Below, one piece after another: positions 5,714-7,674 of a stretch of 64,000 bases of DNA (the stretch's first letter is position 1; every line of letters starts with the position of its first letter). The notes below the pieces were generated by a model. The model saw only the letters and a program-made list of their open reading frames with translations, made no database searches and had not been told where the DNA came from. Position numbers and translations under genes: made by a program. This stretch comes from Bacteroidota bacterium. Its GTDB lineage: Bacteria; Bacteroidota; Ignavibacteria; Ignavibacteriales; Melioribacteraceae. The DNA is taken from NCBI GenBank assembly GCA_023381535.1, contig JAMCSN010000236.1:1-64000 (forward strand), in the 5' to 3' direction.

Positions 5714-6166
5714 TTACTGCTTCTTCGGTTTGCCTTCATTGATAATTTCTATACACTTCTGATAAACTTTTTCGATATCTGAATTTTTGAAAAGAGGGTG
5801 GTTAAAACGGAAATCGGGATTATCTGTTTCAACATTGTATGAATAGCTTTTTAGAACGTTGTCTTTTTCGTCGTAATAGATGATTTGCAGAATGCTGTAC
5901 CGCCCCGATTGCTTGTTGAATAAGTAATAAGTTCTTGTTTTGTAAATGTCGCCGTCAACTTCGTCAATCGTGATTGGTTTTTTTGTTTCTTCGAGCGTCC
6001 AGACATAAAATTCGTTGCCCTGAAAACTTGATAAACCGGTTACGTTGATGTAAAGAGAACCTTCGCTATCAATAGTTACAGGTACCCAGTTCTCTGTTGT
6101 CTGTGAATAAACAAGCCCAGCAGAAACGAACAAGATAATTAACGGCAATATTTTTTTAATCTTCAT
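5714..6166 (-). CDS. Hypothetical secreted protein
   Basis: About 150 residues beginning MKIKKILPLIILFVSAGLVYSQ, a clear signal peptide ending before TTENW. The open frame extends upstream to 6268, but that extension reads through the tandem GIY-YIG repeat, so the ATG at 6166 (or the adjacent one at 6169) is chosen. The mature part is beta-rich (WVPVTIDSEGSLYINVTG...) with a basic C-terminus. I do not recognise a family. Its 5' flank directly follows the leftmost copy of a tRNA-Ser 3' end and is probably the original sequence downstream of that tRNA. Confidence 0.65.
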   Translation of the reverse strand: MKIKKILPLIILFVSAGLVYSQTTENWVPVTIDSEGSLYINVTGLSSFQGNEFYVWTLEETKKPITIDEVDGDIYKTRTYYLFNKQSGRYSILQIIYYDEKDNVLKSYSYNVETDNPDFRFNHPLFKNSDIEKVYQKCIEIINEGKPKKQ

Positions 6167-6264
6167 CATTAGCCTACCAAACATTTGCGGAAAGGGGGGG
6201 ATTCTCCCTAAGGGATCCCTTTGGGAGAACCTACGGTTAATCATGTTATTTCTTTTCGTTTCAG

Positions 6265-6483
6265 TCACTTATATCCCTCAATACTTTTGAAAAACAACTC
6301 ACGCTTTAATGCTTCAGTTCTTGTATCATATTTTTCTGAGTAATGTAAAATCCAAGGACGATGGCCTTTGGAATATCTTACTTTGCCAGAATTATGTTCG
6401 TGCAATCTCTTTTCTAAATTTCCGGTTGAACCGTAATAAAAAGAGTTATCCTTGAGACTTTTCAAAACGTATGCAAAGTACAT
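6265..6483 (-). CDS. GIY-YIG nuclease-like mini-protein, copy A (truncated)
   Basis: 72 residues starting MYFAYVLKSLKDNSFYYGS, a GIY-YIG fold of the small UvrC-N/URI type. Visible are the AYV...YYG strands, the Arg in LEKRLHEHNSGK and the Glu in TEALKRELFF. It ends at EGYK because a TGG codon present in copy B is TGA here, removing about 8 residues. The longer frame starting at 6531 only reads through the repeat. It is nearly identical to copy B. Whether it is expressed is unclear: upstream it has just the tRNA tail. Confidence 0.7.
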   Translation of the reverse strand: MYFAYVLKSLKDNSFYYGSTGNLEKRLHEHNSGKVRYSKGHRPWILHYSEKYDTRTEALKRELFFKSIEGYK

Positions 6484-6537
6484 GCGGAAAGGGGGGGATT
6501 CCTCCAAAGGAGTCCCTTTGGGAGAACCCACAGTTAA

Positions 6538-6780
6538 TCATGTTATTTGTTTTCGTTTTAGCCACTGATACCCTTCAATACTTTTGAAAAACAATTCACG
6601 CTTTAATGCTTCAGTTCTTGTATCATATTTTTCTGAGTAATGTAAAATCCAAGGACGATGGCCTTTGGTATATCTTACTTTGCCTGAATTATGTTCGTGC
6701 AATCTCTTTTCTAAATTTCCGGTTGAACCGTAATAAAAAGAGTTATCCTTGAGACTTTTCAAAACGTATGCAAAGTACAT
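6538..6780 (-). CDS. GIY-YIG nuclease-like mini-protein, copy B (intact)
   Basis: 80 residues: MYFAYVLKS..., then a conserved Arg (KRLHEHNSG) and Glu (EALKRE), the layout of single-domain GIY-YIG endonucleases. The open frame continues upstream to 6864, but that part is simply the tRNA-Ser gene read as protein. The real ATG at 6778-6780 starts two bases past the tRNA discriminator base, so it has no independent ribosome-binding site. Many Bacteroidota carry such single-domain GIY-YIG genes, often next to tRNAs. A nuclease role is inferred; a DNA target is not known. Confidence 0.8.
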   Translation of the reverse strand: MYFAYVLKSLKDNSFYYGSTGNLEKRLHEHNSGKVRYTKGHRPWILHYSEKYDTRTEALKRELFFKSIEGYQWLKRKQIT

Positions 6781-6781
6781 G

Positions 6782-6870
6782 CGGAAAGGGGGGGATTCGA
6801 ACCCCCGGTTCCAGTTACCCGGAACAACGGTTTTCGAGACCGCCGCATTCAACCACTCTGCCACCTTTCC
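6782..6870 (-). tRNA. tRNA-Ser (anticodon CGA)
   Basis: On the minus strand the acceptor arms are GGAAAGG / CCTTTCC (6864-6870 with 6783-6789), with a G discriminator at 6782. The anticodon stem-loop GCGGT-CTCGAAA-ACCGT gives CGA. A long variable arm (TTGTTCCGGGTAACTGGAAC) and a T-loop GTTCGAATC mark it as class II. CCA is not encoded; the sequence continues directly into the GIY-YIG start codon. Confidence 0.95.
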
Positions 6871-6968
6871 AAAATTGATGCGCTAAGATAAAAAAAATTT
6901 GATTGTAAATGCTTTCCGATTTTTCCGTATTAACAATTATTGATATATTTGCGCGACATTTTCCAGAT

Positions 6969-7055
6969 GGAGAGGTGCAGGAGTGGTTGAACTGGCTACC
7001 CTGGAAAGGTAGTGTACTCGCAAGGGTACCGTGGGTTCGAATCCCACTCTCTCCG
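6969..7055 (+). tRNA. tRNA-Ser (anticodon GGA)
   Basis: Acceptor GGAGAGG pairs with TCTCTCC (one G-U). The anticodon arm CTACC-CTGGAAA-GGTAG gives GGA. A long variable arm (TGTACTCGCAAGGGTAC) and the T-arm GTGGGTTCGAATCCCAC follow. The discriminator is G and CCA is not encoded. It is divergent from tRNA-Ser(CGA), about 100 bases away. Confidence 0.97.
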
Positions 7056-7110
7056 CACGGATTTAGATTAACCTCTCTCTCAACACCTACAAAAAAAATA
7101 GCGGTGAGAA

Positions 7111-7674
7111 ATGAATCTGGGGAAAACACTTCTTGTTACCGGCAGAAAAGAATGGCGGCAGTGGCTCAAGAAAAATTACGATAAAGAAAAAGAAATTTGG
7201 CTGGTCTATCCCAACAAGCACTCTAAGAAAAAGCGAATTGAATATAACGACGCTGTTGAAGAAGCGCTATGTTTTGGTTGGATTGACAGCAATGTGAAAA
7301 AAGTTGATGAACTCTCACACGCGCAGCGTTTTACTCCGCGCAAACCAAAAAGCAAATACTCTCAAGCAAATATTGAACGATTGAGAAAACTTTCCGAAGA
7401 AGGAAAGCTTTTGCCGGAAGTTAATTCCACTGTTGAAAAAATAATTTCCCAAAAATTTATCTTTCCAAAAGATATTTTGAATACGATCAAAGCAAATCCA
7501 GTCGCATGGAAAAACTACAAGGAGTTTTCGGAACCTTATAAACGAATTTGCATTGCTTTTATCGAAGGTGCGCGAAAACGACCTGCTGAATTTGAAAAAC
7601 GACTTTCATATTTCGTCAAAATGACTGAACAGAATAAAATGTTCGGCTTCGGCGGGGTAAATATCTATTACTGA
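7111..7674 (+). CDS. YdeI/OmpD-associated (OmdA-like) family protein
   Basis: 187 residues. The N-terminal WRQWLKKNYDKEKEIWLVYPNK, the middle EEALCFGWIDSNVKKVDE and the RFTPRKPKSKYSQANIERLRKL segment are typical of the YdeI/OmdA family, sometimes called bacteriocin-protection proteins. The C-terminal part (KRICIAFIEGARKRPAEFEKR) matches the family's helical tail. It is a soluble cytoplasmic protein of unclear biochemical role. It starts 55 bases after tRNA-Ser(GGA). Confidence 0.8.
   Translation: MNLGKTLLVTGRKEWRQWLKKNYDKEKEIWLVYPNKHSKKKRIEYNDAVEEALCFGWIDSNVKKVDELSHAQRFTPRKPKSKYSQANIERLRKLSEEGKLLPEVNSTVEKIISQKFIFPKDILNTIKANPVAWKNYKEFSEPYKRICIAFIEGARKRPAEFEKRLSYFVKMTEQNKMFGFGGVNIYY

What the first reader, a model, noticed from the sequence alone, without database searches (positions are those of the whole stretch)
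6187..6870. GIY-YIG nuclease genes attached to tRNA-Ser(CGA) in tandem 297-bp units, each ending in a copy of the tRNA 3' end
Two units of exactly 297 bp follow the tRNA and each carries one GIY-YIG gene, a palindrome and a 17-19-base copy of the tRNA tail. Three successive tRNA tails therefore exist, and the leftmost one borders the original flank. This is the footprint of a very small mobile unit that integrates at tRNA 3' ends and regenerates them, with a GIY-YIG nuclease as the only protein. The units differ at few bases, so duplication is recent.
Basis: partly seen in the sequence, partly recalled or inferred. Interest (0 to 1): 0.85.

Follow-up and report, generated by a model that had tools for sequence, protein, structure and literature searches.

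The report
Tiny nuclease element parasitising tRNA genes
A 300-base stretch of DNA that codes for one small DNA-cutting enzyme has inserted beside a bacterial tRNA gene, leaving a whole tRNA on one side and a broken tRNA fragment on the other, and the same arrangement recurs beside many different tRNA genes in many bacteria, which points to a widespread and apparently undescribed kind of selfish element.

Summary
After tRNA-Ser(CGA) (6781-6870, minus) lie two 297-bp units, 95% identical, each with an 80/72-aa GIY-YIG gene, a 22-nt double hairpin and an 18-nt copy of the tRNA 3' end. It is no local oddity. In 11 genomes holding relatives, 37 of 42 compact GIY-YIG genes lie within 500 bp of a tRNA, all on its strand; 0 of 9 YhbQ-like ones do. 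Two mirror forms occur: intact tRNA-gene-tRNA 3' fragment, and tRNA 5' fragment-gene-intact tRNA. Fragments of at least 16 nt of the neighbouring tRNA were found in 72 of 82 loci, against 14 of 246 with a foreign tRNA; clean hairpin inserts in them lie in tRNA loops (30 of 34). Empty sites exist: three relatives for the window's site, ten for a 5'-side site. Gene lineages track tRNA isotype (32 changes vs 71 shuffled); the protein is under purifying selection. Three loci are at RNase P RNA genes. Best reading: an intronless homing-type element of structured-RNA genes that leaves one copy intact. Mobility is inferred; cutting is untested. Closest known: fungal mitochondrial mobile ORFs with duplicated gene ends.

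The parts
6781..6870 (-). intact tRNA-Ser(CGA), the target gene
   Evidence: ARAGORN
6483..6779 (-). 297-bp unit next to the tRNA
   Evidence: the repeat finder
6186..6482 (-). second 297-bp unit, 95% identical
   Evidence: the repeat finder
6538..6780 (-). GIY-YIG gene, 80 aa; its ATG begins two bases after the discriminator base of the tRNA
   Evidence: PF01541, 54.4 bits
6265..6483 (-). second GIY-YIG gene, 72 aa, ends early at an in-frame TGA
   Evidence: PF01541, 54.3 bits
6781..6798 (-). 18-nt tRNA 3' end inside the intact tRNA (T-loop middle to 3' end)
6484..6501 (-). 18-nt tail copy
   Evidence: 100% identical
6187..6204 (-). 18-nt tail copy that borders the original flank
   Evidence: empty sites
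6502..6523 (.). 22-nt double hairpin in the T-loop of the tail copy; its second half differs from the other unit by four stem substitutions, two per side, which keep it paired
   Evidence: read
6205..6226 (.). 22-nt double hairpin in the T-loop of the last tail copy
6524..6534 (-). tRNA relic left of the hairpin (ACTGTGGGTTC); its T-stem half is that of tRNA-Ser(GGA), not tRNA-Ser(CGA)
   Evidence: read
6227..6237 (-). same relic in the other unit (ACCGTAGGTTC)
   Evidence: read
5714..6169 (-). original downstream neighbour gene (start codon approximate); its ortholog directly follows tRNA-Ser(CGA) in three relatives
6969..7056 (+). tRNA-Ser(GGA), no element here; in G005 the closest relative of the element sits on this tRNA

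Best explanation
It is a minimal intronless homing-type selfish element of structured-RNA genes, here doubled in tandem. Shown by comparison: a 279-bp unit (gene, short tRNA relic, hairpin) lies in a locus that relatives have empty, flanked by an 18-bp duplication of the tRNA-Ser(CGA) 3' end, and the intact tRNA is kept. Inferred: the 80-aa GIY-YIG protein, whose nearest solved relatives after UPF0213 are the structure-specific Slx1 nucleases, nicks or cuts the tRNA gene at a hairpin loop; repair from a DNA copy that carries the element copies the gene in and duplicates part of the tRNA, so one tRNA copy is whole and the other is a broken remnant. Hairpin inserts collect in the loops of the remnant, where they would destroy the cleavage site. 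The gene is carried on the tRNA transcript. Lineages keep to one tRNA isotype and occasionally switch.
For: Place: of 147 distinct genes taken mostly from the top of the hit lists, 111 lie within 500 bp of a tRNA, 78 downstream and 33 upstream of it, none of these on the opposite strand; 37 of 42 compact vs 0 of 9 YhbQ-like in 11 genomes. Fragments: at least 16 nt of the neighbouring tRNA on the far side of the gene in 72 of 82 loci, 14 of 246 with tRNAs of another isotype; 41 of 50 3'-side copies end at the tRNA 3' end and 24 of 27 5'-side copies start at tRNA base 1; copies perfect to the neighbour in 31 of 39 and 17 of 20, mean identity to other tRNAs 49% and 53%. Empty sites: three genomes for the window's site; ten of 12 for the 5'-side tRNA-Arg(TCG) site, with G307 holding a related but different gene at the same place. 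Lineage follows isotype: 32 changes vs shuffled mean 71, minimum 66 of 100; genome 81 vs 93. Functional protein: of 40 pairs, 15 gave a ratio, dN/dS 0.05-0.26 in 14 and 0.45 in one. Fold: pLDDT 95; UPF0213 and Slx1 by profile. Loops: 30 of 34 clean inserts; 34 of 69 inserts strict hairpins vs 3.7 in shuffles.
Against: No cleavage or transposition was observed. The intact tRNA beside the element in G003 and G307 is identical to that of seven empty relatives, so nothing in its sequence protects it; why it is not cut again is unexplained. Isotype tracking is partly vertical inheritance: all five locus pairs of 71-85% aa identity between genomes have similar flanking DNA on at least one side, two of them on both. 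Duplications run 30-42 bp past the tRNA through its terminator in four loci and 9-15 bp upstream in three, so their ends are not always the tRNA ends. Ten of 82 loci lack a 16-nt fragment (one of them at a contig end). In L093 the fragment after each of two neighbouring tRNA-Ser genes matches the other one better. One 8-gene array has no intact tRNA in the stretch fetched. Fragments were found by likeness to the neighbour, so one search is partly circular; one search is the control. Most named source records are metagenome bins, where tandem repeats can be misassembled.
Confidence: 0.6

Rival explanations
1. Palindrome-led model: the mobile parts are the dispersed hairpins, which enter hairpin loops and make tRNA genes duplicate by template switching; the Slx1-like GIY-YIG protein acts on hairpins, as RAYT transposases do for REPs (recalled), and merely lives in these spots.
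For: The palindrome CCTGCCTGCCGGCAGGCAGG (up to 1 mismatch) has 19 sites in G018, 6 in G003 (3 of them in the units), 3 in G005, 1 in G040, 0 in G001; reversed control 0. Hairpins sit in anticodon, variable and T loops of one fragment (L107). A tRNA-Thr tail with the hairpin and no nuclease gene exists (L138).
Against: The hairpin can be upstream or downstream of the gene, and its sequence changes from locus to locus while the gene family stays; gene lineage follows tRNA isotype.
Confidence: 0.2
2. Host function: the gene is a resident helper of tRNA gene expression or repair, co-transcribed with tRNAs.
For: On the tRNA strand in all 111 linked cases; purifying selection.
Against: Patchy presence with empty sites within a genus, many unrelated tRNAs, tandem arrays and decayed copies, broken tRNA fragments beside it.
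Confidence: 0.08
3. RNA-level process: tRNA-derived cDNA was inserted, which would explain ends that match mature tRNA ends.
For: Fragments often end at the tRNA ends.
Against: Of 26 3'-side fragments of tRNAs whose gene encodes no CCA, only 2 are followed by bases that complete CCA; duplications can run through the terminator or upstream of base 1; the unit encodes no reverse transcriptase.
Confidence: 0.04
4. Ordinary tandem duplication of a tRNA with a passenger gene, not self-driven.
For: Tandem arrays of up to eight units among the loci read; the intact tRNA is unchanged.
Against: One gene family recurs at many tRNA anticodons in two phylum-level samples with the same geometry, which a passive passenger would not show.
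Confidence: 0.08

Closest known systems
Fungal mitochondrial mobile ORFs with duplicated gene ends (Allomyces atp6; Glomus atp6, atp9, cox2, nad3; PMC3630166)
   Same: Endonuclease gene inserted in a host gene together with a copy of part of that gene; the hybrid gene is expressed at the mRNA level and the displaced native end remains behind; the Glomus atp9 case is GIY-YIG (passages seen).
   Different: Protein-coding mitochondrial genes and foreign, diverged C-termini; here bacterial tRNA (and rnpB) genes, fragments mostly identical to the host tRNA, both 5' and 3' forms, hairpins in the loops, a protein of only about 80 aa.
T4 free-standing GIY-YIG homing endonucleases, notably SegB in the tRNA region (PMC2988022)
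   Same: Stand-alone GIY-YIG gene beside tRNA genes, intronless homing (Table 1 and passages seen).
   Different: Phage-borne, in a tRNA intergenic region; the paper's text has no word beginning with 'duplicat'.
Integrative elements that use tRNA 3' ends as attachment sites (recalled, no call)
   Same: Restore the tRNA and leave a direct repeat of its 3' part.
   Different: Need a tyrosine integrase and are kilobases long; no integrase in the 297-bp unit.
UPF0213/YhbQ-YazA and Slx1 GIY-YIG proteins
   Same: Nearest solved sequences and folds.
   Different: YhbQ-like genes in the same genomes are not next to tRNAs (0 of 9).
REP/RAYT and Rickettsia palindromic elements (recalled; PMC3733652 seen only in the listing)
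   Same: Short dispersed palindromes.
   Different: Here hairpins lie in loops of tRNA fragments beside a GIY-YIG gene; the 297-bp unit encodes no transposase.

Membership tests
GIY-YIG nuclease superfamily | GIY-YIG fold and catalytic residues | tested here: met
   PF01541 54 bits; Y5, Y16, G18, R26, H30, E62 invariant in 27 sequences; model pLDDT 95 with best matches to 1zg2 and Slx1
Free-standing homing endonuclease | presence/absence at a fixed site in relatives | tested here: met
   empty sites: 3 genomes, 10 of 12
Free-standing homing endonuclease | site-specific cleavage of the allele without the element | not testable with these tools
   needs enzyme assay
Free-standing homing endonuclease | element disrupts or alters its own target so that the carrier is immune | tested here: inconclusive
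   fragment loops carry hairpins but the intact tRNA equals that of empty relatives
Fungal mORF with duplicated gene end | copy of part of the target gene beside the endonuclease gene, target kept whole | tested here: met
   72 of 82 loci at 16 nt or more, foreign-tRNA control 14 of 246
Fungal mORF with duplicated gene end | duplicated part is foreign and diverged from the native end | tested here: not met
   fragments mostly identical to the neighbouring tRNA: 31 of 39 and 17 of 20
tRNA-targeting integrative element | site-specific recombinase gene | tested here: not met
   the only protein family found in the unit is GIY-YIG
Group I intron with homing endonuclease | intron inside the tRNA, spliced out | tested here: not met
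   the tRNA is uninterrupted
REP/RAYT system | Y1 transposase with cognate REP sequences | tested here: not met
   no such protein in the unit; a transposase elsewhere in the genome was not looked for

The most novel reading that the evidence does not exclude
A natural cleave-and-rescue parasite of structured-RNA genes: a single 80-aa nuclease attacks hairpin (cruciform) loops of tRNA and RNase P RNA genes, an essential gene kept whole by a duplicated copy makes the element hard to lose, and the hairpin inserts in D, anticodon and T loops of the remnant are healed footprints of its cuts. It would be one of the smallest autonomous selfish elements known and would use RNA-gene secondary structure, not one fixed DNA sequence, as its target.
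Probability: 0.3. Interest if true: 0.95.

Novelty: new variant of a known kind. Interest (0 to 1): 0.85.

Why it matters
If right, tRNA genes, common landing sites of large integrative elements (recalled), are also parasitised by units of about 300 bp. The sources that name the window protein's relatives call them 'putative endonuclease', 'GIY-YIG nuclease family protein' or hypothetical (120 of 182 hits listed, most unnamed). Family hits are common: 91 of 148 genomes in the phylum of G003 (overlaps the 63 of 99; most hits not checked for a tRNA). They give a directly testable system for how an essential RNA gene is invaded without being lost, where short palindromes in tRNA loops come from, and why tRNA fragments in tandem exist. 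Open reading frames of this family can start or end inside tRNAs, so they also affect annotation.

Tried and rejected
Rejected: (1) local repeat artefact: the same anatomy recurs in many genomes. (2) Phage or plasmid cargo: tblastn found 16 phage and 3 plasmid records, all under 60% identity (best 45.6%), the annotated ones called yazA or GIY-YIG nuclease family protein; their tRNA context was not examined, and a scan of viral contigs failed. (3) Recoded rescue copy: the intact tRNA in G003 and G307 is the same as in seven empty relatives. (4) RNA-templated copy: see rivals. (5) A subfamily with the motif YYEACLN in the phylum of G011 is mostly not at a tRNA; Rfam on 20 loci chosen from those with a gene lacking a tRNA within 500 bp found rnpB adjacent in three, and a self-comparison of 13 of them found a direct repeat around the gene in two. 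At rnpB a fragment like that at tRNAs was not demonstrated; only an 18-nt match in L209.

Weak points: loci were taken mostly from the top of each hit list. Of the 147 genes, 36 had no tRNA within 500 bp; these include YhbQ-like genes, array members, contig ends, rnpB loci and unexplained ones, and were not fully sorted. Of 55 places I fetched 50, which gave 51 distinct genes. The YhbQ-like/compact split used a motif pattern that put at least one YhbQ-like gene (L041) into the compact class. Fragment detection accepted matches of 8 nt (77 of 82 loci); at that level a foreign tRNA also gives 87 of 246, so I use the 16-nt counts. The tree has 82 columns for 107 rows and many open forks. Loop classes count a breakpoint as loop if an adjacent base is in the loop; loops are 41% of tRNA length by strict count. 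Flank likeness was printed for 25 of 108 pairs. In the genus of G005 one further genome, G110, has a weak GIY-YIG hit just upstream of tRNA-Ser(CGA); I did not study it. That nothing is in print rests on nine searches of an open-access library only.

Full report
THE THING ITSELF. On the minus strand the window reads: tRNA-Ser(CGA) (6870-6781), then at once the ATG of an 80-aa GIY-YIG gene (6780-6538), a short tRNA relic, a 22-nt double hairpin, an 18-nt copy of the tRNA 3' end, then a second unit of the same build with a 72-aa gene, hairpin and 18-nt tail, then the flank. The units are 297 bp each and 95% identical. The tail begins in the middle of the T-loop (GTTC|GAATCC) and the hairpin fills exactly that point. 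Each insert is two 11-nt hairpins; between the units the second one differs by four stem substitutions, two per side, that keep it paired (read).

EMPTY SITE. In the genus of G005 (12 genomes) three genomes, G117, G093 and G113, have tRNA-Ser(CGA) running straight into the ortholog of the window's next gene, with no unit between. G113 has a decayed copy of the gene starting at the 3' end of the neighbouring tRNA-Ser(GGA). In G005 the closest relative is seen on two contig ends (94% over residues 1-36 and 95% over 59-80; that they are one gene is inferred). It sits on tRNA-Ser(GGA) with a tail of GGA type; another gene of the family sits on the 5' side of tRNA-Ser(CGA), and the tRNA pair appears inverted relative to its flanks. 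In the window the relic left of the hairpin has the T-stem half of tRNA-Ser(GGA) (GTGGG, one base changed in one unit), whereas the tail right of it is of CGA type. This suggests that the unit came from the GGA tRNA and that the tail was made from the new target; it rests on one diagnostic base. G110 has a weak GIY-YIG hit upstream of its tRNA-Ser(CGA), not studied.

THE FAMILY. Twelve related loci from 11 genomes were followed by a search of those genomes: 55 places, 50 fetched, 51 distinct genes. Of 42 compact genes 37 lie within 500 bp of a tRNA (18 upstream of it, 19 downstream), all on the tRNA strand; of 9 longer YhbQ-like genes none does. A phylum-level search of 99 genomes (63 with hits at 1e-8) and 70 further loci from its best hits brought the set to 147 genes: 78 downstream and 33 upstream of a tRNA, none of them antisense, 36 without a tRNA within 500 bp. 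With some 50 tRNA genes per genome one expects well under 1% (my estimate, no call). A further sample gave 14 of 15 genes in loci from the phylum of G003 (three were counted before) and 22 of 32 in the phylum of G011, whose genomes are 0.5-2 Mb.

TWO MIRROR FORMS. 3'-side: intact tRNA, gene, tRNA 3' fragment. 5'-side: tRNA 5' fragment, gene, intact tRNA. Of 82 loci with a tRNA within 100 bp, 72 have at least 16 nt, and 66 at least 20 nt, of that tRNA on the far side of the gene; with tRNAs of another isotype the counts are 14 and 7 of 246. Under a looser rule (8 nt, 77 loci) 41 of 50 3'-side fragments end at the tRNA 3' end and 24 of 27 5'-side fragments begin at tRNA base 1. Beyond the tRNA the duplication mostly stops within 0-15 bases; in four loci it runs 30-42 bases through the terminator, and in tandem arrays it is continuous (48 loci). 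Where the fragment end is long enough it is perfect to the neighbour in 31 of 39 and 17 of 20, against mean identities of 49% and 53% to tRNAs of other anticodons (fragments were found by likeness to the neighbour, so this is partly circular). An exception is L093, where the fragments after tRNA-Ser(CGA) and tRNA-Ser(GGA) each match the other tRNA better, as an inversion of the pair would produce.

SECOND EMPTY SITE. G003 has three tandem 5'-side units at tRNA-Arg(TCG). In its genus (12 genomes) ten relatives have this tRNA at the same place without a GIY-YIG gene, and G307 has a different member of the family there, with its own hairpin at the same D-loop position 22|23. The intact tRNA in G003 and G307 is the same as in seven of the empty relatives; two differ slightly and G305 has a diverged tRNA. 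So it is not a recoded copy.

HAIRPINS. Among inserts that lost no tRNA base, 30 of 34 lie in loops, which make up 41% of the tRNA. Under a strict definition 34 of 69 inserts are single or double hairpins, against a mean of 3.7 and a maximum of 8 in 200 shuffles. One palindrome is dispersed outside these units (19 sites in G018, 6 in G003 of which 3 are in the units, 3 in G005, 1 in G040, 0 in G001; reversed control 0), and a tRNA-Thr tail with a hairpin and no nuclease gene exists. The hairpins are therefore not simply part of the unit. I read them as inserts that mark, and would destroy, cleavage points in the copy that is free to decay; this is inference.

PROTEIN. The alignment of 27 keeps the GIY-YIG residues. 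Of 40 pairs compared, 15 gave a dN/dS: 0.05-0.26 in 14, tandem copies included, and 0.45 in one; in the rest dS was saturated. The model has pLDDT 95. Profile search finds UPF0213 BH0048 and EF2693, then Slx1, and weakly I-TevI; Foldseek gives BH0048, Slx1 and I-TevI in that order, with no E-value below 0.001.

LINEAGES. On a tree of 107 tRNA-linked proteins from 38 genomes and the window, tRNA isotype changes 32 times against a shuffled mean of 71 (minimum 66 in 100), side of insertion 22 against 28, and genome 81 against 93. Isotype is much the better predictor. Vertical inheritance contributes: all five locus pairs of 71-85% identity between genomes have similar flanks on at least one side, two on both; of the 19 printed pairs at 63-70%, all on the same isotype, 17 have no flank match at the nucleotide level. 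In G022 sister genes sit on tRNA-Ser(GCT) and tRNA-Ser(GGA), each with the tail of its own tRNA.

RNase P. In three of 20 loci with a gene far from any tRNA, the gene overlaps the 5' end of the RNase P RNA gene by 22-32 bases, same strand. The target class may be structured RNA genes in general.

MECHANISM. Shown: insertion relative to empty sites, duplication of part of the target, intact target retained, many targets, selection on the protein. Inferred: DNA cleavage in a loop by an Slx1-like domain, repair-templated copying, expression on the tRNA transcript. Unexplained: why the intact copy is not cut again. Rivals are a palindrome-led process, a host function, an RNA intermediate and passive duplication; of 26 3'-side fragments of tRNAs without an encoded CCA, 2 complete a CCA, which speaks against the RNA intermediate.

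COMPARISON. Closest in mechanism are mobile ORFs of fungal mitochondria, where an endonuclease gene arrives with a copy of the end of the target gene (PMC3630166, passages seen); they differ in target, in the foreign and diverged ends, and in size. T4 SegB is a free-standing GIY-YIG homing endonuclease in a tRNA region (PMC2988022, passages). The 2006 survey of the superfamily mentions tRNA in three places, none about gene neighbourhood (PMC1564403, passages). Nine literature searches listed no description of tRNA-attached GIY-YIG units in bacterial chromosomes (listings and starts of abstracts seen); the library holds open-access papers only.

VERDICT. New variant of a known kind, with high interest.

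Noticed in passing
L092 1724-2102, L089 1009-1508, L209 990-1480: Members of the family sit directly at the 5' end of RNase P RNA genes, on the same strand, overlapping the first bases; L209 has an 18-nt repeat of rnpB sequence upstream of the gene.
   Followed up: partly
L112 882-3655 (G064 C34): Array of eight GIY-YIG genes 359-373 bp apart, each followed by a tRNA piece that looks like initiator tRNA-Met with a hairpin in the anticodon region, and by a terminator; ARAGORN finds no intact tRNA in the 4.5 kb fetched.
   Followed up: partly
L015, L022, L026, L060, L064: The stop codon of these 5'-side genes is the TAG at tRNA bases 8-10, so tRNA 5' processing would remove the stop codon of the message (inference).
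   Followed up: no
L138 around 1501-1520: tRNA-Thr(GGT) followed by a tRNA-Thr tail with a palindrome but no nuclease gene: a possible solo remnant.
   Followed up: partly
G005 (L149, L161) vs window 5714-7674; L093: The divergent tRNA-Ser(CGA)/tRNA-Ser(GGA) pair appears inverted relative to its flanking genes in G005; in L093 the tails of the two tRNA-Ser genes are swapped.
   Followed up: partly
L158 (G110): Weak GIY-YIG hit (E 1.3e-5) just upstream of tRNA-Ser(CGA) in another genome of the genus.
   Followed up: no
L031 889-1713: Open frame joining a GIY-YIG domain at tRNA-Ala to about 190 residues that look like a methyltransferase (recalled resemblance, not searched).
   Followed up: no
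L189, L193, L194, L197, L215, L216, L217, L047: A related subfamily with a YYEACLN..REKYLKT-like motif in the phylum of G011 is mostly not next to a tRNA; Rfam found only a 5S rRNA farther off in L217.
   Followed up: partly
L137, L143, L145, L147 (G018): Palindrome CCTGCCTGCCGGCAGGCAGG is dispersed, with several copies inside a repeated GTCATTCCGAG...GCGAGG context.
   Followed up: partly
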